Origin: a virus
Length of the DNA stretch: 64,000 nucleotides
IMG/VR virus record: IMGVR_UViG_3300026478_000749
Coordinates: 22,001 to 86,000 of that record
Strand: one strand, 5' to 3'
Part shown: piece by piece, positions 21,791 to 56,129 of the stretch
How the letters are laid out: each line of letters opens with the position of its first letter
Numbering within the stretch: the stretch's first letter is position 1
Translations under genes and position numbers: made by a program
The notes under the pieces: model-generated
Databases searched by the model: none
Told to the model about the DNA's origin: nothing
Seen by the model: only the letters and a program-made list of their open reading frames with translations

Positions 21791-22768
21791 ATGACCGAGA
21801 AGATTCTAGTTGACAATCCCGGACGCTTTGTCCTTTTCCCAATCGAGCACCATGACCTATGGAAGCTTTATAAACAACAAGAAGCATGTTTTTGGACTGC
21901 TGAAGAAATTGATTTAGGGCAAGACATTTATGACTGGGAGAATAAATTAAACGCAGACGAACAGCATTTCGTTAAACATGTATTAGCATTTTTTGCAGCA
22001 TCTGATGGTATTGTTAATGAGAATATTGCAATGAATTTTGTTAACGCTGTCCAATACACTGAAGCTAAAATGTTTTATGGCTTTCAGATTATGATGGAAA
22101 ATATACACAGTGAAACTTATTCATTGTTAATTGACACATACATTAAAGATAAGGAAGAACAAAATAAATTATTTAATGCCATTGAAACTGTTCCTGCTAT
22201 TAAAAGAAAGGCGGAGTGGGCATTAAGATATATCGAAAAAGGAACTTTTGTTGAAAGACTTATTGCTTTTGCTGCGGTTGAAGGTATCTTTTTCTCTGGG
22301 TCATTCTGTGCAATTTTCTGGTTGAAAAAAAGAGGTTTGATGCCAGGTTTAACTTTTTCTAACGAATTGATTTCTCGTGATGAAGGTATGCATTGTGATT
22401 TTGCGTGCCACCTATTCAATCATCATATTGAAAACAAACTATCACAAAAGCAAATTAAAGATATTATCTGTGGTGCTTTAGAAATTGAGAAAGAATTTAT
22501 TCTTGAGGCTTTACCAGTAAGACTTATTGGTATGAACTCAGATTTAATGGCGCAGTATCTTGAATTTGTAACAGATAGATTATTAGTTGCTTTAGGCGTT
22601 CCTAAGGTTTACAATTCAGAAAACCCATTTGATTTTATGCAAAATATTGCTCTACAAGGAAAAACAAATTTCTTTGAAAAGAGAGTTGCTGAATATCAAA
22701 AAGCGGGTGTTAATAAAACTGCAGAAGCAGAAGATCTAGAATCAGCATTTGGTGATTTGGAATTTTAA
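21791..22768 (+). CDS. nrdB: Ribonucleoside-diphosphate reductase, class Ia beta subunit (NrdB)
   Basis: 325 residues. Dinuclear-iron ligands and the radical tyrosine are visible in order: [10 protein letters not shown] (Asp), [12 protein letters not shown] (Glu-x-x-His-x-x-x-Tyr, as in E. coli E115/H118/Y122), EGIFFSGSF (Glu) and RDEGMHCDF (Glu-x-x-His). So this is a complete, active-looking class Ia radical-generating subunit. The C-terminus [11 protein letters not shown] would dock into NrdA. It reduces nucleotides to dNTPs for phage DNA synthesis. The gene lies 14 bases before nrdA in the order B-A, and both follow the helicase gene. Confidence 0.96.
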
Positions 22769-22782
22769 AAATATAATTTGAG

Positions 22783-25218
22783 ATGAAAGTACTAAAAAGA
22801 GATGGAACGTTAGAAGAGATGAGATATGACAAGATCACTAAAAGAATTAGTGCTCTATGTGATGATCTTAATATGGATTATGTTGACCCAACATTTATTA
22901 CACTTAAAGTTACTCAAGGAATTTATGATGGAATATCAACTAAAGAGTTGGATGTACTAGCAGCAGAAACTGCAGCATCTATGACAACAACACATCCTGA
23001 CTATGCAAAATTAGCAGGAAGATTAGCTGTCACAAATTTACACAAGACAACACCAAAGAAGTTTTCTCAGGCTATTAAAGAATTACATTCTTTTATTGAG
23101 CCAAAGACTGGTAAAGAGTCAACATTAATTTCTGATGAAGTGTATGAATTTGTAATGGACAATAAAGAAATTATTGACGGTGCAATCAACATTACAAGAG
23201 ATTTTGATTTTGATTATTTTGGTTTTAAAACTTTAGAAAGATCATATCTTTTAAAGATTGGCGAAAGAACAGTTGAAAGACCACAGTACATGTATATGAG
23301 AGTTGCTGTTGGTATTTGCAATGGTGATGTCCAAATGGCATTGAGAATTTATGACGATTTATCACAACATTTTTATACACATGCAACACCAACATTATTT
23401 AATGCTGGAACACGCAGACCACAAATGTCATCATGTTTCTTAATTGGAAACAAAGGTGATGATATCGATGGATTATTTGATACAATCAAAGATGTTGCGA
23501 AAATTTCTAAATGGGCTGGCGGTATTGGTCTACATGTTCACGATGTTCGTGCTAAAGGTGCTTATATTAAAGGTACCGGAGGTATGTCAGATGGCTTATT
23601 ACCAATGATGAAAACCTACAATGAAGTTGCTCGTTGGATTAATCAAGGCGGTAAAAGAAAAGGTTCTTTTGCAATTTATCTTGAGCCATGGCATTCAGAT
23701 GTGTTGGAATTCATCGATCTAAGAAAGAATCACGGTAAGGAAGAAATGAGAGCTAGAGATTTATTCTTAGCTATGTGGACACCAGATTTGTTTATGCAGC
23801 GCGTTGAATCTGATGGCGATTGGTCATTATTTTCACCAGACGAAGCACCAGGACTTTCTGATGCATACGATACACCGGAAGACAAAGCATTTACTCGTTT
23901 ATACGAACAATATGAGTCAGAAGGTAAAGCTAGAAAGGTGATGAAAGCCAGAAAACTTATGGACGCTATTTTAACAGCACAAATTGAGACAGGTACACCA
24001 TACATGTTATATAAAGATGCTGCTAATTATAAATCAAATCAAAAGAATTTAGGTACAATTAAATCCTCAAATTTATGTACTGAAATCATTGAATATAGTT
24101 CACCAACAGAACAAGCGGTGTGCAACTTAGCTTCTATCGCCCTACCAAAATATATTTTAGATGGTGAATTTAATCATCAATTATTATTTGAATACACTTA
24201 TCAAGTTGTTAAGAATTTAAATAATGTTATTGATTTGAATTTTTACCCAACAGAAGAAACTAAAAGATCTAACTTCAAACATAGACCAGTTGGTTTGGGT
24301 GTACAAGGATTAGCAGATGTGTTCTGCATGTTGTCACTACCTTTTGAAAGTGAAGAGGCAGATAAATTACAAACAGAAATTTTTGAAACAATTTATTTTG
24401 CTGCAGTAACATCATCAAAAGATATTGCAAAAGAAGTTGGGGCATATGAATCTATTTCCGGTTCACCAATAGAAAAAGGTATTTTCCAATACGAAATGTG
24501 GGGTAAGACAGATAAAGATATGTCTGGAAGATGGGATTGGAAATCCTTGAGAAAAGAAGTTGTAAAGTATGGTGTTAGAAATTCATTACTTGTTGCACCA
24601 ATGCCAACGGCATCAACTGCGCAAATTTTAGGTAACAATGAAGCGTTCGAACCATTTACAACAAATCTTTATTCAAGAAGAACATTAGGTGGTGAATTTA
24701 TTGTTGTAAACAAACACTTGGTTAAGGATTTAATGAACTTAGGCTTATGGAATGAAGAATTGAAAAAGAAGTTAATTCTTGAAAACGGTTCTATTCAAAA
24801 CATCCCAGAAATCCCTACACCGATTAAAGAAGTTTATAAAACTGTTTGGGAAATGTCTCAAAAGAGAATTTTACAAATGGCCGCTAACAGAAGTATTTTT
24901 ATTGATCAATCACAGTCAATGAATTTATTCATCGACAATGCAACAAAAGCTAAAGTACTTGCTGCTCATTTGTTCGGTTGGAAATTAGGTCTTAAAACTG
25001 GTATGTATTATTTGAGAACAAGATCTGCCGTTGATCCAATTAAAGGTTTAGGTTTAGATACATCAACAGTAAAACCTGTTGCTGAAACACAGCCAAAACA
25101 ACAAACAACATATACTACGCCTCAAAATACAATTATAAGTGAAGAAACACCTGAAGTTGTAATGATGGCTAGTAGACCAGATGATTCCCCATTTGAGTGT
25201 GAAGGATGTGGATCGTAA
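22783..25218 (+). CDS. nrdA: Ribonucleoside-diphosphate reductase, class Ia alpha subunit (NrdA)
   Basis: 811 residues. It starts with an ATP-cone (MKVLKRDGTLEEMRYDKI), so dATP feedback is likely. The active site shows QMSSCFLIG, SSNLCTEIIE (Asn, Cys, Glu of the glycyl centre), AVCNLAS, the PMPTASTAQILGNNE loop and GMYYLRTR (the tyrosine relay). A Pro/Thr/Gln-rich flexible tail ends in FECEGCGS, which supplies the CxxC pair that re-reduces the active site. No intein or split is present. Together with NrdB it makes dNTPs in the cytoplasm. It ends the DNA-metabolism block and is followed by a candidate structured RNA and a UUCG terminator. Confidence 0.97.
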   Translation: MKVLKRDGTLEEMRYDKITKRISALCDDLNMDYVDPTFITLKVTQGIYDGISTKELDVLAAETAASMTTTHPDYAKLAGRLAVTNLHKTTPKKFSQAIKELHSFIEPKTGKESTLISDEVYEFVMDNKEIIDGAINITRDFDFDYFGFKTLERSYLLKIGERTVERPQYMYMRVAVGICNGDVQMALRIYDDLSQHFYTHATPTLFNAGTRRPQMSSCFLIGNKGDDIDGLFDTIKDVAKISKWAGGIGLHVHDVRAKGAYIKGTGGMSDGLLPMMKTYNEVARWINQGGKRKGSFAIYLEPWHSDVLEFIDLRKNHGKEEMRARDLFLAMWTPDLFMQRVESDGDWSLFSPDEAPGLSDAYDTPEDKAFTRLYEQYESEGKARKVMKARKLMDAILTAQIETGTPYMLYKDAANYKSNQKNLGTIKSSNLCTEIIEYSSPTEQAVCNLASIALPKYILDGEFNHQLLFEYTYQVVKNLNNVIDLNFYPTEETKRSNFKHRPVGLGVQGLADVFCMLSLPFESEEADKLQTEIFETIYFAAVTSSKDIAKEVGAYESISGSPIEKGIFQYEMWGKTDKDMSGRWDWKSLRKEVVKYGVRNSLLVAPMPTASTAQILGNNEAFEPFTTNLYSRRTLGGEFIVVNKHLVKDLMNLGLWNEELKKKLILENGSIQNIPEIPTPIKEVYKTVWEMSQKRILQMAANRSIFIDQSQSMNLFIDNATKAKVLAAHLFGWKLGLKTGMYYLRTRSAVDPIKGLGLDTSTVKPVAETQPKQQTTYTTPQNTIISEETPEVVMMASRPDDSPFECEGCGS

Positions 25219-25224
25219 GATAAT

Positions 25225-25342
25225 GGGTGGCGCCCTCAAAGTTTAGCTGTCGTCAAGGCGTACCTTGAGCATCCAGGACTTGACAATACAGGGTGCGAAT
25301 ATCAAGTCACAATACTAAAACCCAACTTCGGTTGGGTTTTTT
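25225..25342 (+). ncRNA. Candidate structured RNA with pseudoknot, between nrdA and gp25
   Basis: This 118-base stretch is noticeably more GC-rich than its surroundings and contains no plausible gene. Pairings that can be drawn by eye are: P1, 25230-25236 with 25290-25296 (7 bp, one G-T); P2, TCAAGG 25253-25258 with CCTTGA 25263-25268 over a CGTA loop; P3, GACTTGA 25277-25283 with TCAAGTC 25302-25308. P1 and P3 cross, giving an H-type pseudoknot. An alternative stem GTCAAG 25252-25257 with CTTGAC 25279-25284 competes with P2 and P3. A UUCG terminator closes the element. It could be an independent small RNA, a 3' UTR of nrdA or a regulatory leader. Confidence 0.4.
25317..25342 (+). terminator. 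UUCG-tetraloop terminator after nrdA
   Basis: AAAACCCAAC pairs with GTTGGGTTTT around a C(TTCG)G loop, an exceptionally stable tetraloop, followed by T residues. Confidence 0.92.
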
Positions 25343-25349
25343 ATTTATA
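25342..25349 (+). promoter_or_regulatory. TATTTATA motif directly after terminator
   Basis: Exact motif starting on the last T of the terminator, 30 bases before the gp25 ATG. A variant TATTTATT follows at 25369-25376, 3 bases before the ATG. Confidence 0.4.
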
Positions 25350-25379
25350 TCCATTTTAGTATTGTTTATATTTATTGAT

Positions 25380-25835
25380 ATGGCTACAAAATATGGTATA
25401 GATTTTCCTTTTAGAAATAGCGCGTTAGGTGACTATACTAGAATGACATTGAATATAGATGAAGAGGTAAGAGCAAACCTTATTCATTTGCTATTGACTA
25501 GAAAAGGAAGTAGATATTTTTTACCTGACTTTGGCACTAGATTATATGAATACATATTTGATTTAAACGACAGTATTACTTATAGCAGTATAGAGGATGA
25601 GATTAGAGAAACTGTTAAAATTTACATACCAAATCTAGAAATAAACGCAATAAAAATAACTAATCCTGATATAGATCCAGAAGACGGTGCCTCAAGCATT
25701 AGTGAAGATGAAGATACCAGATTATTTAGAGTTGGCGATGGTTCTACTAAACCATATACAGCTAAAATAAGAATTGATTATACAACAAATAATGGAACAT
25801 TTTCCAGTTCCGACTTTGTAATTATTAACATATAA
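25380..25835 (+). CDS. gp25: Baseplate wedge subunit, gp25/W-like
   Basis: 151 residues from the ATG at 25380. An upstream GTG at 25293 would extend the frame through the RNA element and terminator and is rejected. The sequence shows the gp25 pattern: DFPFRNSALGDYTRMTLNID, EEVRANLIHLLLTRKGSRYF, LPDFGTRLYEYIFDLNDSIT. The R-x-x-x-P-x-F-G-x-x-l motif is the conserved core of the gp25/GPW lysozyme-like fold, which has no enzymatic activity. It forms part of the inner ring that triggers sheath contraction. A Ser/Asp/Glu-rich insert (about residues 100-118) interrupts the C-terminal strands. It is followed after 1 base by the gp6/J-like gene, the same gp25-gp6 order as in other contractile tails. 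Confidence 0.9.
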   Translation: MATKYGIDFPFRNSALGDYTRMTLNIDEEVRANLIHLLLTRKGSRYFLPDFGTRLYEYIFDLNDSITYSSIEDEIRETVKIYIPNLEINAIKITNPDIDPEDGASSISEDEDTRLFRVGDGSTKPYTAKIRIDYTTNNGTFSSSDFVIINI

Positions 25836-25836
25836 T

Positions 25837-27669
25837 ATGAGCAAAAAGATAGCATATACCAACAGGGATTTTGCTGGGTTGAGACAAGACCTGGTAAATT
25901 TAACTAAAGAATATTACCCAGATATTATTCAAAATACAAACGACGCGTCGATTTATTCTGTTTTATTGGATTTAAACGCGGCTGTTTCTGATAACCTACA
26001 TTTTCATATTGATAGAGTTTGGCAAGAAACAATGTTAGATTTTGCTCAAAAAAGACAATCTTTATTTCATATTGCAAAAACATATGGTATTAGAATTCCT
26101 GGGTTAAGACCTTCAGTAGCTTTGTGTGATTTTAGTATTAATGTACCGGCTAGAGGTGATAAAGATGATGACAGATACGAAGGAATTTTAAGAGCTGGAG
26201 CACAAATTTCAGGCGGAGGACAAGTATTTGAAACAATTGAAGATATCGATTTTTCAAATCCTTTTAATAGTAAAGGCGAACCAAACAGATTAAAATTACC
26301 CAATTTTGATAATAACAACAGATTAATCTCTTACACAATTGTAAAAAGAGAGCCGGTTGTTAATGGGGTAACTAAGATTTTTAGAAAAGTAATTAGTCAA
26401 CAAGATCAAAAGCCCTTTTTAAAGATATTTTTACCAGAAAGAAACGTTCTTGGTGTTTCTTCTGTGATCCATAAAGAAGGAACCACATTTGCTGGTAATC
26501 CAGCTTACAGCGAGTTTATAAGCGATCCTAATAAATGGTATGAAGTTCAATCTCTAGTTCAAGACAAGGTGTTTGTTCCAAGCACAACCGGGGTTTCAGA
26601 TAGACCAAATTTCAAAGCTGGAGAATATGTTACAGTACAAAATAAATTTATTACTGAATACACCCCAGAAGGTTATTTCTTTTTAACATTTGGCTCAGGA
26701 AACGTCGATCCACTTGATAACTTAGACAATTATATTACAGATAAATTAAAAGTAAATTTATCATCATATCTAAACAATCTTTCATTAGGTTCAATCCCAA
26801 AACAAGATACAACACTATTCATAAAATATAGAATAGGTGGTGGTAAAGAAAGTAACATTGGGGTTGGTGTCATCAATAATGTGGAAAATTCGGATTTTAT
26901 CATTACAGGTCCTAATTCTGACACAAATAGCCAAGTTTCACAATCTTTGAGTGTAACTAACGTAACACCAGCTGTTGGTGGAGCTGATCAACCAACTGTT
27001 GAAGAACTAAGAGCAATGGTTGCATATAACTTTGCAGCACAAAATAGAGCGGTGACTCTAAATGATTATAAATCAATGATTGAAACGATGCCATCAACAT
27101 ACGGAGCGCCAGCAAAAGTCAATGTGATGGAGGAAGATAACAAAGTAAGAGTTAAGCTATTGTCCTATGATGAAAGCGGTAATTTAACAAACGTTGTTTC
27201 TAACACATTAAAACAGAACATATTAAATTATCTTTCTCAATTTAGAATGATAAACGATTATATTGATATCGTTAGTGGTGAAGTTATTGACATGGGACTA
27301 GAAATTGACCTTTTATTAGATAAAAATCAAAACCAAGGAGAAGTTATTAGAGATGTGATTTCAGCAACAACAGATTATTTTTCAATCGATAAAAGAAAAA
27401 TGGGTGATCCTTTGTTTGTTGGTGAATTAATGAAAGAAGTTAACAATGTTCCTGGGGTAGTAAACGTTATCGATGTGAGAGTTTTCAATAAAATCGGTGG
27501 CGAATATTCTTCATCACAGGTGTCACAGTCGTACAAAGACCCAGCAACAAAAGAAATTTTGCAAAATGATATGACGATTTTTATGAAAGCTAATCAAATA
27601 TTCCAGATTAGATTTCCTCAAAAAGACATAAAAATCAGGGTAAAAACATTAGGCACGACTACATATTAA
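25837..27669 (+). CDS. gp6: Baseplate wedge protein, gp6/J-like
   Basis: 610 residues, similar to T4 gp6 (660). The start MSKKIAYTNRDFAGLRQDLV, the following YYPDIIQNTNDASIYSVLLD and LHFHIDRVWQETMLDFAQKR match the N-terminal helical part of gp6-type wedge proteins. Mid-protein it has GYFFLTFGSGN. PTVEELRAMVAYNFAAQNRA and TLNDYKSMIETMPSTYGAP follow the baseplate J pattern 'l-R-x-x-a-x-x-x-x-x-x-x-a-V-t-x-x-D-Y'. Dimers of this family make the hexagonal inner baseplate ring with gp25. It is coupled to gp25 by a 1-base gap. Confidence 0.9.
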   Translation: MSKKIAYTNRDFAGLRQDLVNLTKEYYPDIIQNTNDASIYSVLLDLNAAVSDNLHFHIDRVWQETMLDFAQKRQSLFHIAKTYGIRIPGLRPSVALCDFSINVPARGDKDDDRYEGILRAGAQISGGGQVFETIEDIDFSNPFNSKGEPNRLKLPNFDNNNRLISYTIVKREPVVNGVTKIFRKVISQQDQKPFLKIFLPERNVLGVSSVIHKEGTTFAGNPAYSEFISDPNKWYEVQSLVQDKVFVPSTTGVSDRPNFKAGEYVTVQNKFITEYTPEGYFFLTFGSGNVDPLDNLDNYITDKLKVNLSSYLNNLSLGSIPKQDTTLFIKYRIGGGKESNIGVGVINNVENSDFIITGPNSDTNSQVSQSLSVTNVTPAVGGADQPTVEELRAMVAYNFAAQNRAVTLNDYKSMIETMPSTYGAPAKVNVMEEDNKVRVKLLSYDESGNLTNVVSNTLKQNILNYLSQFRMINDYIDIVSGEVIDMGLEIDLLLDKNQNQGEVIRDVISATTDYFSIDKRKMGDPLFVGELMKEVNNVPGVVNVIDVRVFNKIGGEYSSSQVSQSYKDPATKEILQNDMTIFMKANQIFQIRFPQKDIKIRVKTLGTTTY

Positions 27670-42434: not shown

Positions 42435-44006
42435 ATGGCAACAATAAGATTATATAGTACATCTGGCTTATACAATGGTTATTATGCTGACGTTGTTTTC
42501 CACCCATATAGTGGAGGAACAGCTGTCAATATTGGCACCAATGTACTTATACCTTATTTTTGGACATCCGATTATTACTATGGTACATATGATTTTAATT
42601 TTAAAAATGAGCTTGAGGGTTTTACATGTAATTTAGAAATTGTACCAAATGTAACACCAACCCCAACAACAACCCCAACAATCACATTTACACCTACTGA
42701 AACACCAACAGTAACATCTTCAGATAGTTGTGAATTTATAATTGATATTAATGCAATAATTGCAACACCAACCCCTACATTTACTACAACCCCAACTATC
42801 ACAGAAACACCAACGGTGACCTCTTCAGATAGTTGTGAGTTTATGATTAACATCGATGCTATTATTGCAACACCAACACCAACACCAACGTCTACCGGAA
42901 CACCAACAATAACTCAAACCCCAACTACAACCGAGACACCGACGCCAACAGAGACACCTACTATTACAATTACCCCAACAGAGACATATACACCAAATTG
43001 TGATTTTATTATCGATACTATTGCTATAATTGCTACACCAACACCAACTTCAACACCTACAATAACAGAGACACCTACGTCTACTGAGACACCAACTATC
43101 ACACAAACGCCAACTTCAACATCTACTGCGACACCAACGATAACTGAAACACCAACATCTACTTATACACCAAATTGTGAGTTTGTAATAGATACTGTTG
43201 CGGTAATCGCCACACCAACACCTACTTCAACTTCTACACCAACAACAACTGAAACGCCAACAGCAACCCCAACCTCTACTGCAACACCAACGGTAACTGA
43301 AACACCAACAGCAACGCCAACATCAACTTATACACCTGATTGTGCGTTCCAAGCTGCGTTTGGTACACCATTAGTTGTTGATGAAAATACTGAAATTAAT
43401 ATTTGGTTTGATGATAGCGGCTCAATGAATTCAACATTAGCACCATTACAAACTATGAGAGATACCATTTTAAGAGATTGTCTTGTTCAATTCTACAATA
43501 ATGATTATAACACATATGATCAAAACGTAACGGTAAGCAACTTCTCAAGTAAAACTGGTGGTACAGAGAGAACGATGTACATATTGAACACAACTGGAAC
43601 AACAGCTGGTATAACTAAGGTTATAAATTTAGTATTCCAAGATGAATCTTCACCATATGCTGCTGACGGTAGTTCATTTAATATTAGCGTCAGAACAGGA
43701 ACATATGATACAGACATAAGTGGCTTAAGATCAACGCTTGACAATGTTCCGAATAGCAGTTATTATAGAGGTATTGTGTTTAGAGTTAATACAGGACCAG
43801 ATTCGTATGACGGATTTAGACAATTCTTAGCTGCCGTTAAAAACGGGGCTGGAGCATATTCGGGAACAAATGGTCTATCAGATAAGAGTGAAATAACCTA
43901 CATTTCAAATGTTACAGCAGGATCAAATGCTCAGTATTATGCGGATCAAATAATAACAGCACTAAACACATTGGGGTATAATTTAAACCTGTGTAATCAA
44001 AGTTAA
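42435..44006 (+). CDS. Fibre protein with Thr-Pro linkers and a vWA domain carrying a MIDAS motif
   Basis: 523 residues in three parts. Residues 1-72 are a small strand-rich anchor. Residues about 73-300 are Thr-Pro linkers with four beads ([68 protein letters not shown]). Residues about 303-523 form a von Willebrand A-like domain: [15 protein letters not shown] has the MIDAS motif D326-x-S328-x-S330, followed by alternating helices and strands ([34 protein letters not shown]). vWA domains bind ligands through a divalent metal, so this is a plausible receptor-binding tip. The exact fold should be confirmed by structure prediction. Confidence 0.6.
42652..43336 (+). repeat. Thr-Pro linker with four C[ED]F beads
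   Basis: Encodes linkers between anchor and vWA domain. Beads begin at about 42727, 42829, 42991 and 43171. The antisense strand reads as artificial Val-Gly-Val ORFs. Confidence 0.85.
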
Positions 44007-44025
44007 TGAATAATTATATAGAATA

Positions 44026-47000
44026 ATGGCAAAACAATTCACAGTAACAATATCTTCAGGGACAGCACCAGGGCCATACAACATTTATTATGATGTTGTT
44101 GATCCGTTGAATATTGCTACTGTAGTTTCAACGTCACTACCTGCAACAGGAATAACATATTCAGATTTAACAAACATAAACGGCGTATTGGTATCGGTAC
44201 CAGATAATGCGTATAAAATAATTTTATATAACACAGATCCATATTGTTTAATCGGTGACGATTTAATTTTACCAACACCAACACCAACAGCTACACCAAC
44301 AACAACACCAACAATTACTGCTACACCTACTATAACACCAACCCCAACCCCAACATTTACAGCAACGCCAACATCAACTTATACACCAAATTGTGAATTT
44401 ATTATTGATACCTCGGCGACTATTATAACGCCGACACCAACATCTACCGCGACACCAACCCCAACAAACTCAACACCAACGGATATTACATTAAGTAATG
44501 ATAGTATAAATGAAAATAGTGCTATAAACACTATTATCGGTACATTGAGCACAACAGATGCAAATCCGGGTGATACACATACGTACAGCATTCAACCAGG
44601 TGGTAATGGGTTTAAATTTAATATATCTGGTAGTAGTTTAAGATCATCTGAATCTTTTAATTATGAAGCAGCAACTTCATACACAGTAACAATTAGATCA
44701 ACAGATAGTGGCGGATTATATTTTGATAAAACATTTACAATTTATGTAAACAATGTAAATGAAGCACCATACGGCTTGAATTTCAGTGGTTCAATTCCTG
44801 AAAATTCAGCAACAGGTACAACTGTTGGTACAATAACGGCTTTGGATGTTGATTCTGGTGATACATTTACATATGCATTAACAGATACAATAAATTATCC
44901 AGATAATAATAGTTTTACATTAACAACAGCGGGGGTTTTAAAATCAGCTGCGGTTTTTGACTATGAAACAAAAAATTCATATTCAATTAAAGTAAGAACA
45001 ACAGATGCTGGCGGATTAACATATGATGGTGTATTAACAGTACCAATTACAAACGTTAATGAGGCACCTTACGGTTTAACAATAAGCAGTAATACAATTG
45101 CAGAAAACTCTGCAACAGGAACAACTATTGGAACTCTATCTGGTTTAGATTATGATGCTGGATCGACATTTACTTACGCATTTACAGATACCATAAATTA
45201 TCCTGATAATAGTAGCTTTAGCATAAGTGGATCAACACTTAGATCTGCTGTTATCTTTAATTATGAAACCAAATCTTCATATTCAATTAAAATTAGGGTT
45301 ACTGACCAAGGTGGGTTAACGTATGATGGAACATTAACAATCAATGTAACAAATGTTAACGAAACACCAACAAATATTTCATTAAGCGCGTCTTCAATTG
45401 CTGAAAATGTTGCTACTGGTACAACAATTGGTACGTTATCAACAACAGATCCAGATGCTGGTGATACATTTACATATCAGCTATATGATACTGCAACCTA
45501 TCCTGATAACAGTAGCTTTAGCATAAGTGGATCAACACTTAGATCTGCTGCAGTTTTTAATTATGAAAGCAAAAGTTCGTATAGCATTAGGGTTAGATCA
45601 ACAGATGCTGGTGGATTAACATTTGATAAAACATTAACGATTACAATTACGAATGTAAACGAAACACCAACGGGCATTTCATTATCATCAAACACAATTG
45701 CAGAAAATTCTGCGACCGGAACAACAATTGGTACGTTATCAACAACAGATCCAGATGCAGGGGATACGTTTACTTATACATTAACAGATACAGTAAATTA
45801 TCCCGATAATAGCAGCTTTACCATTGTTGGTTCATCACTAAGATCTGCAGCAATATTTAATTTTGAATCTAAATCTTCTTATTCAATCAAAGTTAGATCA
45901 ACAGATGCGGGCGGATTAACAGTAGATCAAACTTTTGCAATTTCTGTTACAAATGTTAATGAAGCCCCAACAAATATAAGTTTAAGTTCTTCATCAATAT
46001 CAGAAAACGTACCAACCGGAACAACTGTTGGTACATTTAGTTCTACAGACCCAGACGCTGGTGATACATTCACATATGCATTAGTAGATACATCAACATA
46101 TCCAGATAATAGTAGTTTCTCAATTTCAGGAAGCACATTAAGAAGTGCGGCCATTTTTGATTTTGAAACACAATCAACATATTCAATAAGAGTTAGAGCA
46201 ACAGATGCAGGTGGACTAACCTATGACAAAACAATAACAATATCTATTACAAATGTTACAATATCTGTTGGAGCATCTGTAACAACAAATGTGACGTGTA
46301 ATGGCGGATCAAACGGTGTTATAACAGTATCGGGTGTCACTGGCGGAACTGCAAGTTATACATATTCTAAAGATGGGTCAACTTATCAGTCGTCAAATGT
46401 ATTTAGCGGCTTAACTGCTAATTCATATATTTTATATGCCAAAGATTCTTATGGTGAAGTTGGTAGTAGTGCTGTAGTAACAGTAACTCAACCAGCAGTA
46501 GTCTCACTTAGTGCATCTGGAACAAACCCAACGTGTGTTGGTAGTACCGATGGTTCAATTACAGTATCATCTGCATCTGGCGGGTCTGGAAGTGGTTATA
46601 CCTATTCTAAAGATGGTTCAAGCTATCAGACTGGGACAACATTTAGCAATTTAGCTAATGGAACATATACAATTTATGCAAAAGATAGTAATAATTGTAC
46701 TGGATCAACTTCAGTAACATTAAGTAGAACACAAGTTACTGCAACAATATCACAAACAAATGTAACTTGTAATGGAGGTAACGATGGGTCAATAGTTGTT
46801 TCTGATTTAGCTGGTGGTCAAGGCGGACCATATTCAACAAAATTAAATGCCGGAGGAACTTACCAAGTAATTACAACCTCAAGAACATATTCATCACTAA
46901 CAGCAGGTTCATACACAATTTATGTGAAAGATAGTGCTGGTTGTGAAAATACGTATGCAGTAACAATAACTCAACCATCTCAAGTAACAGTTAGTTCATC

Positions 47001-48963
47001 TTCATTGGTGTATCCAACTTGTTGGAATAGTACTAACGGTGGATTTACATTAAGTGCTTCTGGGGGTGTAGGAACATATCAATATTCTAAAGATAACGGG
47101 GCAACATGGCAAAGTAGTGGTGTTTTCACTAACTTAAGTTCTGGTGTTTATACTGTTAAATCAAAAGATAATAGTGGATGCCAATCTACTGGTTTAACGG
47201 TTGACATAACTAAGTCCGCACCAACACCGGTGGTCAACCAAACAAACGTTTCTTGTAATGGAGGAACTGGATCATTAAATGTTGTTGGCGCAAGTGGTGG
47301 TAATAATGGGCCGTATACTGTTTCATTAAATGATGTAACATACTATACGGTACAAAAATTATTTGACTCATTATCACCTGGGGTATATACATTATATATT
47401 AAAGATGCAACAGGATGTAAGGCGTCTTATACATATACAATCACACAACCATCTGCATTAACAATAAGTGTTAGCTCTGCAACAAATCCAACTTGTTGGA
47501 ATGGTACAAATGGTGAAATAGTTGTTTCGGCATCTGGTGGAACAGGAACAAAAACTTATTCAAAAGACGGTACAAACTACCAAGCAAGCGCAACGTTTAG
47601 CAATTTAGGTACAGGTACATATACATTGTATGTAAAAGATGCTAATGATTGTACCGCAACAGTATCACAAACCTTATCTAAATCAGCTCCTAATGCGCAG
47701 ATTCAAGTGACTAATCCATCTTGTTTTGGTGGTACAGGTTCAATAGTTGTTTCTGCAGGTACAGGAGGAAATGGCGGCACGTATCAATCAAAATTAAATG
47801 CCGGAGGAACTTATGGAAATCTCCCACAAACATATTCGAGTTTAGGTGACGGATCGTACACAATTTTTGTTAAAGATGGTTCAGGATGTGAGCAAACATA
47901 TTCTACTTCAATAAGTGTTCCAACTCAAGTGACAATCAGTACAAATGCAACATATCCAACATGTTATAATAGCTCTAATGGTGCTGTTACAGTTGGGGCT
48001 GGTGGAGGAACTGGCTCGTACGAATACTCTAAAGATGGTGGATCAACATGGCAATTAAGTAATTCATTTACTAGTCTCTTTGCTACAACATATACCTTTA
48101 GAGTAAAAGATAGCAACGGATGTTTATCATCAACACAATCTGTTAACTTAAGTAAAGCGGCGCCTTATGCTAATATTTCAGTTTCTAATGTGACTTGTAA
48201 CGGAGGATCAAACGGCTCAATTACATTAACTAACCCAACAAGTGGAAATAGTGGCCAAATTACCGCATCATTAACAGGTGGTGTATCTGATTACTATTCA
48301 TTTACACTTGGTACATTAACATTTAGTAATAAAACTGCGGGTACATATACTGTATACATAAAAGATTCTAGTGGTTGTGTTGCTACATATGAAGCTATCA
48401 TAACTCAACCTACAGCACAATCAGCTTCAATTAGTAGTCCTGTAAACCCACCATGCGCTGATCCAAATGGAGGTAGCTTGACAATTTCATCTGCAGGTGG
48501 TGTGTGGCCTAAGACATATAGATTATATGAAGACGAATCTTCGCCATATACAACTTGTGGCGGCACATTAAGAGCGACATATACTAACGTCACTTCAGAT
48601 AATACAAGTAGAAGTGTTACAGGTCTAACTTCTGGCGGATTCTGCTTAGAAGTAACAGATGCAAACGGATGTGTAGTTACAAGCGGAATAACAGTTTTAG
48701 TTGACGAAGCGGTAAATTATACATATCAAGTTATCAGATGTAGTGACAACGCATATTTAACAATGACTTCACCAGATGTATTAGTATCAGCATTCTTAGG
48801 TGGAACTAAAGTGGTGAAAATCAATAATGTATGTTACCAAATCGACTACTCAACTGGTACGCAGTGTTCAACTAGTTCAATTCATTTAGCTGACGGAAAT
48901 AACGCAGTAATCTATAACAATTGTACTAACTGTAGTAGTGGTAGCGGAGGTCAACAAGTATAA
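44026..48963 (+). CDS. Giant modular adhesin: Thr-Pro linker, six cadherin-like repeats, ten SprB repeats
   Basis: 1645 residues. Residues 1-82 are an anchor (ISSGTAPGPYNIYYDVVDPL). Residues 83-149 are a Thr-Pro linker with one bead (NCEFIIDTSATIITPTP). Six cadherin-like repeats of about 98-100 residues follow to about 743, each with the pattern TPTNISLSASSIAEN, GTLSTTDPDAGDTFTY, YPDNSSFSISGSTLRSA, SIRVRSTDAGGL, TITNVNE; DPDAGD and TDAGGL are the usual Ca-binding positions. Ten SprB-type repeats of about 80 residues then run to about 1560, with pattern NVTCNGGSNGVITVSGVTGG, YTYSKDGSTYQSS, AGSYTIYVKDSAGC. The last 85 residues are a Cys-rich cap (CSTSSIHLADGNNAVIYNNC). SprB repeats are the hallmark of Bacteroidota gliding adhesins, so this long fibre probably contacts the host surface and may be host-derived. 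It carries no secretion signal. Confidence 0.75.
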   Translation: MAKQFTVTISSGTAPGPYNIYYDVVDPLNIATVVSTSLPATGITYSDLTNINGVLVSVPDNAYKIILYNTDPYCLIGDDLILPTPTPTATPTTTPTITATPTITPTPTPTFTATPTSTYTPNCEFIIDTSATIITPTPTSTATPTPTNSTPTDITLSNDSINENSAINTIIGTLSTTDANPGDTHTYSIQPGGNGFKFNISGSSLRSSESFNYEAATSYTVTIRSTDSGGLYFDKTFTIYVNNVNEAPYGLNFSGSIPENSATGTTVGTITALDVDSGDTFTYALTDTINYPDNNSFTLTTAGVLKSAAVFDYETKNSYSIKVRTTDAGGLTYDGVLTVPITNVNEAPYGLTISSNTIAENSATGTTIGTLSGLDYDAGSTFTYAFTDTINYPDNSSFSISGSTLRSAVIFNYETKSSYSIKIRVTDQGGLTYDGTLTINVTNVNETPTNISLSASSIAENVATGTTIGTLSTTDPDAGDTFTYQLYDTATYPDNSSFSISGSTLRSAAVFNYESKSSYSIRVRSTDAGGLTFDKTLTITITNVNETPTGISLSSNTIAENSATGTTIGTLSTTDPDAGDTFTYTLTDTVNYPDNSSFTIVGSSLRSAAIFNFESKSSYSIKVRSTDAGGLTVDQTFAISVTNVNEAPTNISLSSSSISENVPTGTTVGTFSSTDPDAGDTFTYALVDTSTYPDNSSFSISGSTLRSAAIFDFETQSTYSIRVRATDAGGLTYDKTITISITNVTISVGASVTTNVTCNGGSNGVITVSGVTGGTASYTYSKDGSTYQSSNVFSGLTANSYILYAKDSYGEVGSSAVVTVTQPAVVSLSASGTNPTCVGSTDGSITVSSASGGSGSGYTYSKDGSSYQTGTTFSNLANGTYTIYAKDSNNCTGSTSVTLSRTQVTATISQTNVTCNGGNDGSIVVSDLAGGQGGPYSTKLNAGGTYQVITTSRTYSSLTAGSYTIYVKDSAGCENTYAVTITQPSQVTVSSSSLVYPTCWNSTNGGFTLSASGGVGTYQYSKDNGATWQSSGVFTNLSSGVYTVKSKDNSGCQSTGLTVDITKSAPTPVVNQTNVSCNGGTGSLNVVGASGGNNGPYTVSLNDVTYYTVQKLFDSLSPGVYTLYIKDATGCKASYTYTITQPSALTISVSSATNPTCWNGTNGEIVVSASGGTGTKTYSKDGTNYQASATFSNLGTGTYTLYVKDANDCTATVSQTLSKSAPNAQIQVTNPSCFGGTGSIVVSAGTGGNGGTYQSKLNAGGTYGNLPQTYSSLGDGSYTIFVKDGSGCEQTYSTSISVPTQVTISTNATYPTCYNSSNGAVTVGAGGGTGSYEYSKDGGSTWQLSNSFTSLFATTYTFRVKDSNGCLSSTQSVNLSKAAPYANISVSNVTCNGGSNGSITLTNPTSGNSGQITASLTGGVSDYYSFTLGTLTFSNKTAGTYTVYIKDSSGCVATYEAIITQPTAQSASISSPVNPPCADPNGGSLTISSAGGVWPKTYRLYEDESSPYTTCGGTLRATYTNVTSDNTSRSVTGLTSGGFCLEVTDANGCVVTSGITVLVDEAVNYTYQVIRCSDNAYLTMTSPDVLVSAFLGGTKVVKINNVCYQIDYSTGTQCSTSSIHLADGNNAVIYNNCTNCSSGSGGQQV
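44271..44480 (+). repeat. Thr-Pro linker with one C[ED]F bead
   Basis: Links the anchor to the first cadherin-like repeat; the bead is near 44387. Confidence 0.8.
44473..46257 (+). repeat. Six tandem cadherin-like domain repeats (about 300-bp unit)
   Basis: Unit length is close to 300 bases. Bases 45202-45250 and 45502-45550 differ at only one of 49 positions and are exactly 300 bp apart, which shows recent duplication or gene conversion. Confidence 0.85.
46258..48708 (+). repeat. Ten tandem SprB-type domain repeats (about 240-bp unit)
   Basis: Each unit encodes a Cys near its start (TCNGG, TCWN, SCFGG) and a second Cys near its end (KDxxGC or DANDC). Some are near-identical in short stretches, such as the KLNAGGTY segments at about 46840 and 47800. 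Confidence 0.8.
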
Positions 48964-49018: not shown

Positions 49019-49585
49019 ATGATAGTTACTTTCACATTACAAAATCAATATTCTGGCGCAACATATGTAGCTGGGCCTTTTAATATTTCGGGAACAACTG
49101 ACGCTAACGTAACAACAGAATTAGCGACGGGAATAACCAAAGAACAGTTATTAACCGGACATACAATTACAGGTATTACTGATTCAACAACCGGTGGAAC
49201 AATTGCTAGTACTGGGGTTTGCACAAATACTCAACAATGGGTAGCTTTCCCATCACAATCAACACCAACACCAACAGTAACCCCATCAGCGTATGGATAT
49301 TGTTACAGTCTGACTTATTCAACAATACCAAATGATCTATATGTTAGATATAGAGACATGGAAGGTGTGGTTACAACGACTCTAATCCAAAATTTACAAA
49401 GTATGGATAATGGAAATGGAACATATACCGCCTACATATGCGTTATGCAAGGAGGTTCATACCAATCTCCGGTTTGTGTTCAATACAGTATGGAAGTTAC
49501 TTGCGACCCATACTTATGGTCAACAGATAACTGTATTTGTACCACAGTATCTGGTAGTGAATGTTTTGTACCATGTGCCAACTAA
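49019..49585 (+). CDS. Small Cys-rich fibre-associated protein
   Basis: 188 residues. The N-terminal 70 residues form an anchor-like beta region (VTFTLQNQYSGATYVAGPFN, ATGITKEQLLTGHTITGI) of the same general type as the start of the 1645-residue adhesin, including the TGIT and 'i-x-x-i' spacing. A very short Thr-Pro hinge (QSTPTPTVTPS) follows. The C-terminal half is Cys-rich (YGYCYSLTYS, YICVMQGGSYQSPVCVQY, CDPYLWSTDNCICTT, ECFVPC) and probably disulphide- or metal-stabilised. It looks like a miniature version of the neighbouring anchor-linker-tip fibres. A strong terminator follows. Confidence 0.5.
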   Translation: MIVTFTLQNQYSGATYVAGPFNISGTTDANVTTELATGITKEQLLTGHTITGITDSTTGGTIASTGVCTNTQQWVAFPSQSTPTPTVTPSAYGYCYSLTYSTIPNDLYVRYRDMEGVVTTTLIQNLQSMDNGNGTYTAYICVMQGGSYQSPVCVQYSMEVTCDPYLWSTDNCICTTVSGSECFVPCAN

Positions 49586-49641: not shown

Positions 49642-49667
49642 TTTTATAAGAGTTGTATTTATGTAGT

Positions 49668-50875: not shown

Positions 50876-51979
50876 ATGGCATTTAACGCTTCGGTAAATT
50901 TAGGAACAGTAGGAAACGGAATTACAGGACAAACCGTTTCAATATCAGGATGTACAGGTGCATCTTGTGGAAGCGGCTGTACAAGCTTAGCGACATCACA
51001 AGCTGTAACTAGTTTTCCAAAAACATTAACAGGAATACCCGATAACGTGGTTAGTTTATTTGTTAAAGTTGATGGAGGTGATTGTTCAGGAACATCACAA
51101 TGTATTTCTATTACAGGTATACCAGGAGCGACACCAACACCAACAACAACTTCTACTACTGTTAATCCAACGATCACGCCAACAACAACACCAACTATTA
51201 ACCCAACAATTACACCTACCACAACCACTACACCAACTATCAATCCAACAATTACACCTACAGTAACACCAACAACTTGTTTAAGCGGTGATTTAACAAC
51301 AACAGGTACTTGTAGTGGTTCAGATTTATCAACATTTACGTTGGCAAGCGGATACAAAGTAACAGTTGAACCACAAGGTTACTTCTACAGTGGTACAGGA
51401 ACAAGATACGCATATGCATATTTAAGAACAAGTACAGGGGTTGATATTCAACAATTTACATTAACACAAGTTAATAGTAACACACCAACATTCTCACCAA
51501 CAGGATATACATTAACAACACCAGGCACATATCAGCTATATGTACAACAAATAGATTGTAATCAAGGAGGAGGAACTGGAGGTTCCGGTCAAATGAATCT
51601 AGATGTTCGCGATTGTCAAGAATATACTGCAACGCCAACACCAACATTAACACCAACATTGCTTAATGAATTTTATATTGCTTCTCCGGTTGATGTAAGT
51701 TTAACTGGTAGCACATATTGTAGTAGCCCAGGTTATATAATGTCGGGGGTAATAAAATCAACATCATCAACTATTTCAGGAATGCTTAATAATCCTGTAT
51801 ACGATTCTGCTGGCGACCCATTTGTTGGGCCTGGATCAGGTTATGTTTACGCAATAAAAACAACACAATACGGAAATACATACAATGATGGTCAATTTAG
51901 TTGGATTGAAATTGATTCAATGGGTAATGTAACAGACGTAGGATCACAATCATGTGGTGGCGGAGGTGGACCGATGTAA
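50876..51979 (+). CDS. Modular fibre protein with Thr-Pro linker and Gly-rich end
   Basis: 367 residues. The anchor (residues 1-84) has an immunoglobulin-like strand pattern with Cys pairs (ISGCTGASCGSGCTSLATSQ, LTGIPDNVVSLFVKVDGGDC). A Thr-Pro-Ile/Asn linker spans about 85-134. The middle domain (CLSGDLTTTGTCSGSDLSTF, YRYAYLRTSTG-like strands) is Cys- and Gly-rich. A second short hinge (TATPTPTLTPT) is at about 252-262, followed by a C-terminal domain ending SCGGGGGPM. No catalytic or known binding motif is seen. It belongs to the anchor-linker-tip fibre family of the island. Confidence 0.5.
   Translation: MAFNASVNLGTVGNGITGQTVSISGCTGASCGSGCTSLATSQAVTSFPKTLTGIPDNVVSLFVKVDGGDCSGTSQCISITGIPGATPTPTTTSTTVNPTITPTTTPTINPTITPTTTTTPTINPTITPTVTPTTCLSGDLTTTGTCSGSDLSTFTLASGYKVTVEPQGYFYSGTGTRYAYAYLRTSTGVDIQQFTLTQVNSNTPTFSPTGYTLTTPGTYQLYVQQIDCNQGGGTGGSGQMNLDVRDCQEYTATPTPTLTPTLLNEFYIASPVDVSLTGSTYCSSPGYIMSGVIKSTSSTISGMLNNPVYDSAGDPFVGPGSGYVYAIKTTQYGNTYNDGQFSWIEIDSMGNVTDVGSQSCGGGGGPM
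51128..51276 (+). repeat. Thr-Pro-Ile/Asn linker repeat
   Basis: Repeats of the type CCAACTATTAACCCAACAAT encode (TPTINPTIT)n. Confidence 0.75.
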
Positions 51980-52002: not shown

Positions 52003-54204
52003 ATGAGCTTTTTAGATAGTAGTAATTCAGAATTCTTATCAGCAAGAATAACCAGAAAGGGTAGAAAATCTATCGCTGAAGGTAATTTTGTTATAAAATA
52101 TTTTCAGGTCGGTGATTCTGAGTTTGATTATACTTTCAGTGGATTTACTGGAGCAGGCACAACACCAAGACAAAGAGTATTGGCGCCTATGGATGGAGAT
52201 CAGCATGTAAAGTATCCCTATCTATTAACAGGTACAGATACAATTAACTATGGTAACGCTGTTGAACAATCAATAACAACCACATTAAAAAATGCAATGG
52301 GTCCAGCTGGATTTGTTACAAACTATAGACCATATAACGCTAGTCCTTGTACTGGCACAACAGTTGAATGCGTATCAAAAGAAATTTCAACGACAACAAT
52401 TAGTACTACAGTCATTGATGGGGTACCAGTACCAGTTACAGGTACAACTGAATTATCTTTAGGCGTTACAGGTAAAACTGCACAAGATTTTAGAGAATGT
52501 GAGTATATTACATTGGTATTTGATAATGAATTTAAACAGTCTAACAATGTAATAAGCGGTGGAACTCAAAGCTTAGTCTATAAAATTACAGATATTATCA
52601 TTAATACCGGAACGACATTGATAAATGGCGTCCAAACAATTACCGGAGATACTAAATTAGTTTTAGATAGAAGAACGCCAAATTTAGCCGGAGCATCGCC
52701 ATCAAGTGTTACTAGAGTTGTTTGCAACAGGTGTAGCTTAGAGTATCCAGAATCTCCAGCAGGGTCAAGTGTCTGTTCACCATTACCAGTTGACAATCTA
52801 GCGCAACACGATCCATGGACACTAGAAACAATATGGACACAAAAGCCAGCTGGTTTAGACGCGTCTGATGAGGCATTAAGTGGTTATACTGGAACTCAAT
52901 TTGCATCTCTAAAAGAGTATTTGGGATATACATCTACAGGCCAAACATTTACAAATTTAACTGGCGGAACAATTTCAAATCCAACATCATATACAAATTC
53001 ATTCGGTGAAAAAATTGATGTTAAACCAGAAGATCAAAGATGTATTGCTGTTATTCACTATTCAGAATTAGGAGACATTGTTAATGATCCAGAAAGATTT
53101 TTTAAATATGATGATTACATTGGAAGCGAAACGGATGAAGAATATTATACATACGATCCAGATGATTTAGTTTCTGACGTTAATCATTTTGAAGTTTATA
53201 TTCCTTTTATTTTTTATCATAGAAATACAGGAACAACAATCGGCGCAAAATTTGTGATGGATACAACTGATTATTATGTTTCATCAGCAAAAAATACTAA
53301 ACCAAACACAAACAATCTTAAGTTTAGATTTTTATTAGACGAACAAGGTATTCGTGTTGGTAAAGTATTTGTCGATAAAAAAATTATTGTATTTGATGAC
53401 CAAGAATTGGTGGCTGTATTAGAATATAAAACAAATAGAAAATATACATTACCAGCCCCTAGATTTAACACAGTACCATTAGATTTACCAACATTCTATG
53501 ATTTAGATCCAGTAGTTCTTACAGGAGAAACTGCTTGGGTTACATACATGTTCCAATACACTGGCGACACCTATAAAAACGGTATGCACTGTAACTATTA
53601 TGGTAAAATTACAGGTACAACAAATTCAAATATAGGATTTAGATTTGAAACAGGAGATTTTAAATACTTAAGCAATTCATCATATTTTACTGGATTCACA
53701 GCAAATAAATTTTATGCTTTGGTTCAGGTTGTACAAACAGGAAATCAACCGTCCTCAGACGCTTGGAAAATAATTGATTTAACATCTCAAATATCTGGCC
53801 ATACTGTTGGTAACTTAATATCCAAAACAAACATGTGCGGATATCAATTTGTGATAACAGGAGATATGTACGATTCAGCATCAACATATGATATTGAAAC
53901 TTATCTTGGACCATTACCAAATATTGATCAACCAACATTACCACAATTTGGGGATTCACAACCCTTTCCAGGTGCTGTTCAATTAACAAGAGCAACTGAC
54001 GTAGAGGTTTTAAATTTCATGGTTAATTTACCCGGAACACAATTCTTAACAAGCCAGAACCCAACATATGTTACTGGACAACCAAAAAGAATAACAGAGG
54101 TAGCATTATTAAATGAAAATAAAGAACCTTTAGTTACAGCTAAATTAGCTAAACCGTTAGAAAGAACAGGTAATCAGGTATTTTCAGTTAGAATTGATTT
54201 CTAA
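52003..54204 (+). CDS. Large virion structural protein closing the adhesin island
   Basis: 733 residues. It starts FLDSSNSEFLSARITRKGRK, SIAEGNFVIKYFQVGDSEFD, an N-terminal pattern I associate with baseplate-attached structural proteins of large T4-like phages. A four-Cys patch (VVCNRCSLEYPESPAGSSVC) may bind zinc. The centre has EDQRCIAVIHYSELGDIVND and VNHFEVYIPFIFYHRNTG. The C-terminus ends LTRATDVEVLNFMVNLPGTQ, RITEVALLNENKEPLVTAKL and FSVRIDF, as if packing into a wedge or collar. It has no Thr-Pro linker, unlike the genes before it, so it may be a shared holder for the fibres. No named family is certain. Confidence 0.5.
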   Translation: MSFLDSSNSEFLSARITRKGRKSIAEGNFVIKYFQVGDSEFDYTFSGFTGAGTTPRQRVLAPMDGDQHVKYPYLLTGTDTINYGNAVEQSITTTLKNAMGPAGFVTNYRPYNASPCTGTTVECVSKEISTTTISTTVIDGVPVPVTGTTELSLGVTGKTAQDFRECEYITLVFDNEFKQSNNVISGGTQSLVYKITDIIINTGTTLINGVQTITGDTKLVLDRRTPNLAGASPSSVTRVVCNRCSLEYPESPAGSSVCSPLPVDNLAQHDPWTLETIWTQKPAGLDASDEALSGYTGTQFASLKEYLGYTSTGQTFTNLTGGTISNPTSYTNSFGEKIDVKPEDQRCIAVIHYSELGDIVNDPERFFKYDDYIGSETDEEYYTYDPDDLVSDVNHFEVYIPFIFYHRNTGTTIGAKFVMDTTDYYVSSAKNTKPNTNNLKFRFLLDEQGIRVGKVFVDKKIIVFDDQELVAVLEYKTNRKYTLPAPRFNTVPLDLPTFYDLDPVVLTGETAWVTYMFQYTGDTYKNGMHCNYYGKITGTTNSNIGFRFETGDFKYLSNSSYFTGFTANKFYALVQVVQTGNQPSSDAWKIIDLTSQISGHTVGNLISKTNMCGYQFVITGDMYDSASTYDIETYLGPLPNIDQPTLPQFGDSQPFPGAVQLTRATDVEVLNFMVNLPGTQFLTSQNPTYVTGQPKRITEVALLNENKEPLVTAKLAKPLERTGNQVFSVRIDF

Positions 54205-54846: not shown

Positions 54847-54850
54847 AAAA

Positions 54851-55057
54851 ATGGAAAAAACAATTAAAAGAATGGTCGACGGCAAAGTGGTACTTGAAAA
54901 TGTTATCTATGATACTAGTATTAGTAAAAGAATTAATGTTACAAACCCAAACACTGGATATAAAATAAACTCAATTACTATTGATCAAATTACTTATTAT
55001 CCTGTTGGAATTATCAAAGAAAAGAAGACTAAAGAAAAAATGGCAACTAATGTTTGA
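54851..55057 (+). CDS. Small basic protein, unknown function
   Basis: 68 residues, Lys-rich, with a likely strand-turn-strand core (RMVDGKVVLENVIYDTSISK, INSITIDQITYYPVGIIKEK). No family recognised. It follows the resolvase gene by 4 bases and precedes a terminator, so the two are probably cotranscribed. Confidence 0.5.
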   Translation: MEKTIKRMVDGKVVLENVIYDTSISKRINVTNPNTGYKINSITIDQITYYPVGIIKEKKTKEKMATNV

Positions 55058-55094
55058 TAAAGAACTTTATTTGTGTTATATTTAATAATGTAGG

Positions 55095-55162: not shown

Positions 55163-55189
55163 ACGGTTTTTTTTACTTATATTTAAAAT

Positions 55190-56128: not shown

Positions 56129-56129
56129 T

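What the first reader, a model, noticed from the sequence alone, without database searches (positions are those of the whole stretch)
46258..48708. Ten SprB-type repeats in a phage adhesin
The repeats follow the NVTCNGGSNG / YTYSKDGS / G-x-Y-T-x-x-x-K-D-x-x-G-C pattern of SprB repeats, best known from the mobile surface adhesins of gliding Bacteroidota. A phage fibre with these repeats could mimic host adhesins, bind their partners or ride on the gliding machinery. It also marks likely gene flow from the host lineage.
Basis: partly seen in the sequence, partly recalled or inferred. Interest (0 to 1): 0.68.

Follow-up and report, generated by a model that had tools for sequence, protein, structure and literature searches.

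The report
SprB-repeat fibre of a Bacteroidota phage
A large phage that probably infects Bacteroidota bacteria builds what is most likely a cell-binding fibre from the same beads-on-a-string domains that its gliding hosts use in their own surface adhesins, but without the parts that would attach it to the host's secretion and gliding machinery.

Summary
The 1645-aa ORF at 44026-48963 carries ten tandem SprB repeats (PF13573, 128 bits, E 7e-38) at 46255-48705, after a conserved 82-aa N-terminal domain, a Thr/Pro linker and six cadherin domains. The repeats are predicted Ig-like beta-sandwiches (pLDDT 97.8); the closest solved relative by sequence and fold is GhpA, the grappling-hook adhesin of Aureispira (Bacteroidota). 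The gene lies downstream of gp25/gp6-type baseplate genes in a T4-like phage. NrdB (72-75% to Bacteroidota genomes) and scarce Shine-Dalgarno motifs indicate a Bacteroidota host. Related viral contigs keep slot and domain order but vary in cadherin number, SprB number (2/5/6/10/14) and C-terminal tip; tips move between neighbouring proteins. Best reading: a modular fibre whose cadherin and SprB domains space out a swappable tip. A smaller SprB-like protein is a mass-spectrometry-confirmed virion protein of Cellulophaga phage phi19:1. Riding on or mimicking the gliding machinery is not supported: signal peptide and T9SS C-terminal domain are absent. The phage repeats are a diverged set with a two-repeat period not seen in 12 other arrays compared (eleven bacterial), so gene flow from the host lineage is plausible but old.

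The parts
44026..48963 (+). SprB/cadherin fibre protein, 1645 aa
   Evidence: ORF; Pfam
44026..44271 (+). Conserved N-terminal domain, aa 1-82, proposed virion-docking domain
   Evidence: 99% identical to L011; aligned with 13 proteins of related phages, including a second protein in the same locus of L017, L018, L024 and L028. Docking role is inference.
44272..44490 (+). Thr/Pro-rich linker with a CEFIIDT element, aa 83-155
   Evidence: Sequence; similar linkers in 36854-41815, 42435-44006, 49653-50846 and 50876-51979
44491..46254 (+). Six cadherin domains, aa 156-743
   Evidence: PF00028 3.3e-52; own profile finds six
46255..48705 (+). Ten SprB repeats starting at 46255, 46495, 46732, 46972, 47215, 47449, 47683, 47920, 48157, 48406
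   Evidence: PF13573; repeat alignment; own profile; AF2 model of repeats 6-7
48706..48960 (+). Cys-rich C-terminal tip, aa 1561-1645, proposed receptor-binding tip
   Evidence: Unrelated or swapped in relatives: 23% (L011), 13% (L017), 52% (L012). Receptor role is inference.
25293..25835 (+). gp25-like baseplate wedge protein
   Evidence: phrog_261 7e-15
25837..27669 (+). gp6-like baseplate wedge protein
   Evidence: phrog_6 8e-19; annotated relatives in Flavobacterium phage immuto and Microcystis phage Mel-JY01
36854..41815 (+). Large structural-type protein: conserved N-terminal ~770 aa and variable Thr/Pro-rich C-terminus, upstream border of the adhesin slot
   Evidence: N-terminal part conserved in related phages; sub-threshold TIGR02242 phage-tail hit in homologue L027, E 0.03; identity as a tail protein is inference
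42435..44006 (+). Neighbouring Thr/Pro-linked adhesin-like protein; its C-terminal module is found on the 36854-41815 homologue in L012
   Evidence: 79% over 106 aa
49019..49585 (+). Neighbouring adhesin-like protein; its C-terminal module is on the SprB protein of L011
   Evidence: 69% over 72 aa
49653..50846 (+). Neighbouring Thr/Pro-linked adhesin-like protein
50876..51979 (+). Neighbouring Thr/Pro-linked adhesin-like protein whose tip recurs in relatives
52003..54204 (+). Conserved structural-type protein, downstream border of the variable slot
   Evidence: present in most related contigs
21791..25218 (+). nrdB and nrdA, host-lineage evidence
   Evidence: NrdB 74% to Tenacibaculum phage Larrie, 72-75% to Bacteroidota genomes

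Best explanation
The ORF encodes a long modular adsorption fibre of a T4-like phage of Bacteroidota. The conserved N-terminal domain docks to the virion, probably near the baseplate. A Thr/Pro linker and a rod of cadherin and Ig-like SprB domains project a short swappable C-terminal tip that contacts the host receptor; the rod domains may add weak tethering of their own. Repeat numbers change by gain or loss of whole units (SprB arrays of 6, 10 and 14 with a two-repeat AB period; cadherins mostly 3 or 6), which alters reach, while tip exchange alters specificity. The SprB domains derive from the family used in Bacteroidota surface adhesins but have evolved in phages for a long time. Shown: domain content, order, synteny, repeat-number variation, tip exchange, T4-like gene content. 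Inferred: virion location of this protein, docking role, tip as receptor binder, reach as function.
For: Domain composition. Location downstream of gp25/gp6 baseplate genes in a T4-like gene set. The same slot, with the same N-dock / cadherin / SprB / tip order, in related viral contigs. Against L011 the flanking genes are 97-100% identical and the N-terminal domain 99%, but the rod is 62-92% and the tip 23%; against L017 the tip is 13%. Tips move between neighbouring proteins. Ig-like model, pLDDT 97.8, nearest to the GhpA grappling hook by fold and by profile, with other profile hits to phage decoration, tail and neck-whisker proteins. Precedent: Cellulophaga phage phi19:1 gp98 has two SprB-like repeats and is annotated as a virion structural protein by MS/MS, two genes after the tape-measure gene. 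Bacteroidota host: NrdB; 5% SD-like starts as in Flavobacterium phage immuto (2%) against 34% in Microcystis phage Mel-JY01. No signal peptide by inspection and no CTD.
Against: No proteomics or EM for this phage. The N-terminal docking domain has no known relative and no structure. The AF2 model of the neighbouring structural protein failed (pLDDT 39.9), so attachment to the baseplate is not shown. The phi19:1 protein is much smaller and belongs to a different phage family. A head- or neck-bound fibre cannot be excluded: Ig-like phage domains are also head and neck decorations. Foldseek TM-scores are modest (0.42-0.51 for GhpA fragments).
Confidence: 0.72

Rival explanations
1. A head- or neck-attached decoration fibre (Hoc-, pb10- or whisker-like) that binds glycans or particle surfaces non-specifically and keeps the phage near hosts, rather than the receptor-binding tail fibre.
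For: The repeat profile hits phage decoration proteins, a neck-whisker protein and Hoc. Gut phages with Ig-like domains use them to adhere to epithelium (PMC13370021).
Against: The gene sits downstream of baseplate wedge genes. Tips are swapped like receptor-binding tips, including onto the large protein at the edge of the slot. phi19:1 gp98 is encoded close to the tape-measure gene.
Confidence: 0.2
2. An adhesin that mimics host SprB to dock on SprF or other T9SS/gliding partners, or that rides the gliding conveyor.
For: Same repeat family as host SprB. Gliding-machinery parts have been proposed as phage receptors in Flavobacterium (stated in PMC7345892). Swarming Capnocytophaga carries phages at the speed of individual cells (PMC10434198).
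Against: No T9SS CTD and no signal peptide by inspection. SprB binds SprF through its C-terminal 368 aa, not its repeats. Repeats are diverged from host arrays.
Confidence: 0.06
3. A host adhesin gene carried as cargo and secreted by the infected cell.
For: The 642-kb record LR756502 does carry an SprB protein with a signal-peptide-like N-terminus and a type B CTD.
Against: The window protein has neither feature and lies inside a conserved gene block of T4-like phages.
Confidence: 0.02

Closest known systems
SprB-repeat adhesins of Bacteroidota (SprB and relatives, PF13573)
   Same: Same repeat family; tandem arrays of ~80-aa domains; extracellular adhesion
   Different: Bacterial homologues mostly carry a signal peptide and a T9SS C-terminal sorting domain; the phage protein has neither. 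Phage arrays show a two-repeat period.
GhpA grappling-hook protein of Aureispira (PDB 9flp and related entries)
   Same: Best solved relative by profile (1.6e-26) and by fold
   Different: A 5898-residue bacterial protein; the phage protein is 1645 aa with cadherin domains and a phage-type N-terminus
Cellulophaga phage phi19:1 gp98 (phrog_26672)
   Same: SprB-like repeats in a phage structural protein, confirmed in virions by MS/MS per the record
   Different: Only two diverged repeats, below PF13573 detection, different phage family and gene context
Uncultured Caudovirales proteins already annotated 'SprB repeat' in UniProt/BFVD (A0A6J5MUM3, A0A6J5LDA4, A0A6J5LD72)
   Same: SprB repeats in phage sequences; among the top fold matches
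   Different: Domain architecture and gene context of those entries were not examined here
Ig-like-domain phage adhesins (Hoc; BACON/PKD proteins of gut phages, PMC13370021)
   Same: Modular Ig-like adhesion domains encoded near structural genes
   Different: SprB and cadherin domains here, in a variable slot with tip exchange
Cadherin proteins of Caulobacter/Brevundimonas jumbo phages
   Same: Cadherin arrays about 32-38% identical
   Different: tblastn of the SprB part does not match those phages

Membership tests
SprB repeat family PF13573 | Profile score over the curated cut-off | tested here: met
   128.3 bits vs 28
SprB repeat family PF13573 | Tandem ~80-aa units with conserved Cys, GG and KD-x-x-GC positions | tested here: met
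   Repeat alignment; nearly invariant C, G and D positions in 91 aligned repeat pairs
Gliding adhesin SprB (T9SS substrate) | N-terminal signal peptide | tested here: not met
   N-terminus MAKQFTVTISSGTAPGPYNIYYD has no hydrophobic stretch; only a crude filter was used, which also misses some real signal peptides
Gliding adhesin SprB (T9SS substrate) | T9SS C-terminal sorting domain | tested here: not met
   No hit in NCBIfam; three control proteins hit TIGR04131 or TIGR04183
Gliding adhesin SprB (T9SS substrate) | Neighbouring sprF/porP-like gene | tested here: inconclusive
   Neighbours searched in PHROGs/Pfam gave no such hit, but no dedicated search was made
Gliding adhesin SprB (T9SS substrate) | Movement along the cell surface | not testable with these tools
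   Needs experiment
Phage adsorption fibre | Encoded among tail or baseplate genes | tested here: met
   gp25/gp6-like genes upstream on the same strand, conserved block
Phage adsorption fibre | Conserved N-terminus with variable C-terminal end | tested here: met
   99% vs 23% against L011, 82% vs 13% against L017; tip exchange
Phage adsorption fibre | Present in virions | not testable with these tools
   Only a distant relative, phi19:1 gp98, has MS/MS support
Phage adsorption fibre | Binds host receptor | not testable with these tools
   Needs adsorption assay
T4-like myovirus (carrier) | T4-type baseplate, replication and recombination genes | tested here: met
   gp25/gp6-like, T4_baseplate PF12322, UvsX-like, ssDNA-binding, DnaB-like helicase, primase, SbcC/D-like, DNA polymerase
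Bacteroidota phage | Host evidence | tested here: met
   NrdB, SD depletion; indirect, no spacer or isolate
Diversity-generating retroelement target | Reverse transcriptase in the genome | tested here: not met
   No RVT_1 in this record or seven relatives; records may be fragments

The most novel reading that the evidence does not exclude
The SprB domains of the fibre bind host SprB-family adhesins or their ligands directly, so that the phage uses moving surface adhesins of a gliding host as its first receptor and is carried along the cell to its injection site.
Probability: 0.06. Interest if true: 0.82.

Novelty: new variant of a known kind. Interest (0 to 1): 0.42.

Why it matters
It gives a concrete, variable adhesin locus in uncultured T4-like phages of Bacteroidota, a host group whose phage receptors are poorly known. 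It shows phages and hosts drawing on the same adhesion-domain family, with phage arrays that appear to grow by two-repeat units and tips that move between proteins. That makes host-range evolution in these phages directly testable. It also corrects the attractive but unsupported idea that SprB repeats by themselves imply use of the gliding machinery.

Tried and rejected
(1) Gliding-machinery mimicry: rejected as the main reading because T9SS CTD and signal peptide are absent and, in the literature, the CTD rather than the repeats engages SprF. (2) Cyanobacterial host, suggested by helicase and wedge hits to Microcystis phage Mel-JY01: rejected on SD usage and NrdB. (3) Recent transfer from a host: best bacterial repeat 57% for this lineage, so not recent. 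(4) DGR-driven variation: no reverse transcriptase found. (5) Repeat phylogeny as a firm test: 81 columns for 171 rows, 95 of 167 branches unresolved; used only as a clustering result. (6) AF2 model of the N-terminal 500 aa of 36854-41815: failed, pLDDT 39.9; not used. Its profile search of PDB gave only chance-level RNase hits. (10) PDB phmmer with the single sequence gave nothing; the profile search was needed.

Full report
Observation. The ORF at 44026-48963 (+) is 1645 aa. Pfam assigns PF13573 SprB repeats (E 7.4e-38, 128 bits, cut-off 28) and PF00028 cadherin (3.3e-52). A six-frame search of the record finds ten SprB places, all in this frame, and none in 14 control genomes. A profile from the array finds ten repeats at aa 746-1557. 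Layout from the sequence: N-terminal domain aa 1-82, Thr/Pro linker 83-155, six cadherin domains, ten SprB repeats, Cys-rich end 1561-1645.

Repeat structure. Identities between repeats run from 17 to 58%. Even-numbered and odd-numbered repeats resemble their own kind: mean identity at lag 2 exceeds lag 1 in all seven longer arrays of this phage lineage tested (for example 45 vs 38% in the window, 47 vs 37% in L028). The six-repeat array of L019 does not show it. No comparable lag-2 excess appears in twelve other arrays compared, eleven bacterial plus L009. Array sizes of 6, 10 and 14 in relatives fit gain or loss of two-repeat units; this is inference. L016 and L023 each score one extra repeat that overlaps the last cadherin, and were read as 10 and 6.

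Fold. AlphaFold2 on repeats 6-7 with 91 aligned repeat pairs gives pLDDT 97.8 and an all-beta model of two sandwiches. By profile the best solved relative is GhpA, the grappling-hook protein of Aureispira (1.6e-26), followed by Ig-like phage tail, decoration and neck-whisker proteins. Foldseek also puts a GhpA fragment first (E 1e-5, TM-score 0.49 on the query), among many Ig/FN3 proteins. BFVD holds uncultured phage proteins already labelled 'SprB repeat', so SprB repeats in phages are not new in databases.

Carrier and host. The record is an 86-kb virus record, probably a fragment. It has gp25-like and gp6-like baseplate wedge genes, a T4 baseplate-family protein, UvsX-like recombinase, ssDNA-binding protein, DnaB-like helicase, primase, SbcC/SbcD-like proteins and DNA polymerase: a T4-like phage. 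NrdB is 74% identical to that of Tenacibaculum phage Larrie and 72-75% to seven of eleven Bacteroidota genomes tried; two Firmicutes gave no match. Only 5% of starts have an SD-like motif, as in Flavobacterium phage immuto (2%) and unlike Microcystis phage Mel-JY01 (34%). A Bacteroidota host is therefore likely, though no isolate or spacer proves it.

Relatives. A scan of IMG/VR gave 26 loci encoding relatives of the SprB region. L010 is identical; L011, L013, L014 and L015 share one variant; L012, L016-L025, L027 and L028 are more distant. None of these viral proteins has a T9SS-type end by eye; most bacterial ones end in recognisable T9SS-type tails. NCBIfam confirms this on a sample: no CTD in the window protein, TIGR04131 in L009, TIGR04183 in L036 and L059. 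The signal-peptide call rests on a crude filter and on reading the N-termini.

Variation. Between the window and L011 the flanking genes 54244-56891 are 97-100% identical and the aligned part of the upstream large protein 97%. The N-terminal domain is 99%, cadherins 62-89%, SprB repeats 65-92%, the end 23%. L012 and L017 lack three of the cadherins. In L017 the distal repeats and end are the least conserved (32-65% and 13%), the three proximal repeats 81-92%. C-terminal modules move: the end of L011's SprB protein matches the end of window protein 49019-49585 (69% over 72 aa), and the end of window protein 42435-44006 matches the end of L012's homologue of 36854-41815 (79% over 106 aa). The N-terminal domain recurs on a second protein of the same locus in L017, L018, L024 and L028. 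This is the pattern of fibres with a fixed base and exchangeable tips.

Precedent. phrog_26672, which the window protein matches, is represented by gp98 of Cellulophaga phage phi19:1. Its record says 'virion structural protein, annotation based on experimental MS/MS proteomics analysis', two genes after the tape-measure gene. My repeat profile finds two SprB-like repeats in it (62 bits), although PF13573 does not. So an SprB-like domain in a virion of a Bacteroidota phage has experimental support, in a different phage family. Seven Cellulophaga phages, Tenacibaculum phages pT24 and Larrie, Flavobacterium phage immuto and Mel-JY01 have no PF13573 match; LR756502 does. Among 50,697 deposited phage records tblastn of the SprB part finds only LR756502.

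Phylogeny. In a FastTree of 171 repeats (81 columns) the repeats of this phage lineage need 8 label changes against 40.6 for shuffles; other phages' repeats need 9 against 14.5. The tree is poorly resolved, and near-copies make clustering easy. Nearest bacterial repeats to this lineage are up to 57% identical. Together with the lag-2 period this points to an old acquisition followed by evolution within phages; the direction of transfer is not shown.

Mechanism. I commit to a modular adsorption fibre: N-terminal docking, a rod of cadherin and SprB domains, a swappable tip. Shown are domains, order, gene context, variation and exchange. Inferred are virion location, docking, and receptor binding by the tip. 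A head- or neck-bound tethering fibre is the main rival. The gliding-machinery idea has little support: SprB is held by SprF through its C-terminal 368 aa, and that part alone is propelled when fused to GFP (PMC9143113); the phage protein has no such part. A weaker version, host adhesins as the receptor, remains open, since gliding-machinery parts have been proposed as phage receptors in Flavobacterium (PMC7345892) and swarming Capnocytophaga carries phages along (PMC10434198).

Verdict. A real, well-supported SprB/cadherin fibre, a new variant of modular Ig-like phage adhesins; interest moderate.

Noticed in passing
L009 6192-11201 (LR756502.1, 642-kb 'uncultured phage'): SprB protein with 14 repeats, signal-peptide-like N-terminus and a type B T9SS sorting domain (TIGR04131, 49.6 bits): a host-type secreted adhesin in a huge-phage record, or host contamination.
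   Followed up: partly
42435-44006, C-terminal part: Contains DDSGSMNS, resembling a VWA/MIDAS metal-binding motif; Pfam gives no hit. The module is swapped onto another protein in L012.
   Followed up: partly
36854-41815, 42435-44006, 44026-48963: A repeated Thr/Pro linker with an element like CEFxIDTxAxIxTPTPT is shared by several adjacent proteins.
   Followed up: no
34647-35909: Sub-threshold match to carbohydrate-binding module CBM_5_12 (21.0 bits, cut-off 26.2).
   Followed up: no
60925-61590: ClpP-type protease (PF00574, 2e-55) in the phage.
   Followed up: no
L019 2852-6394, L021 2681-6241, L023 1434-4970: A second ORF in one sub-lineage carries a single SprB-like repeat.
   Followed up: no
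BFVD hits A0A5K0U741 (Yasminevirus) and A0A6J5L8Z9 (uncultured Caudovirales phage): Viral records annotated with T9SS-type or gliding-motility C-terminal domains turn up as fold matches.
   Followed up: no
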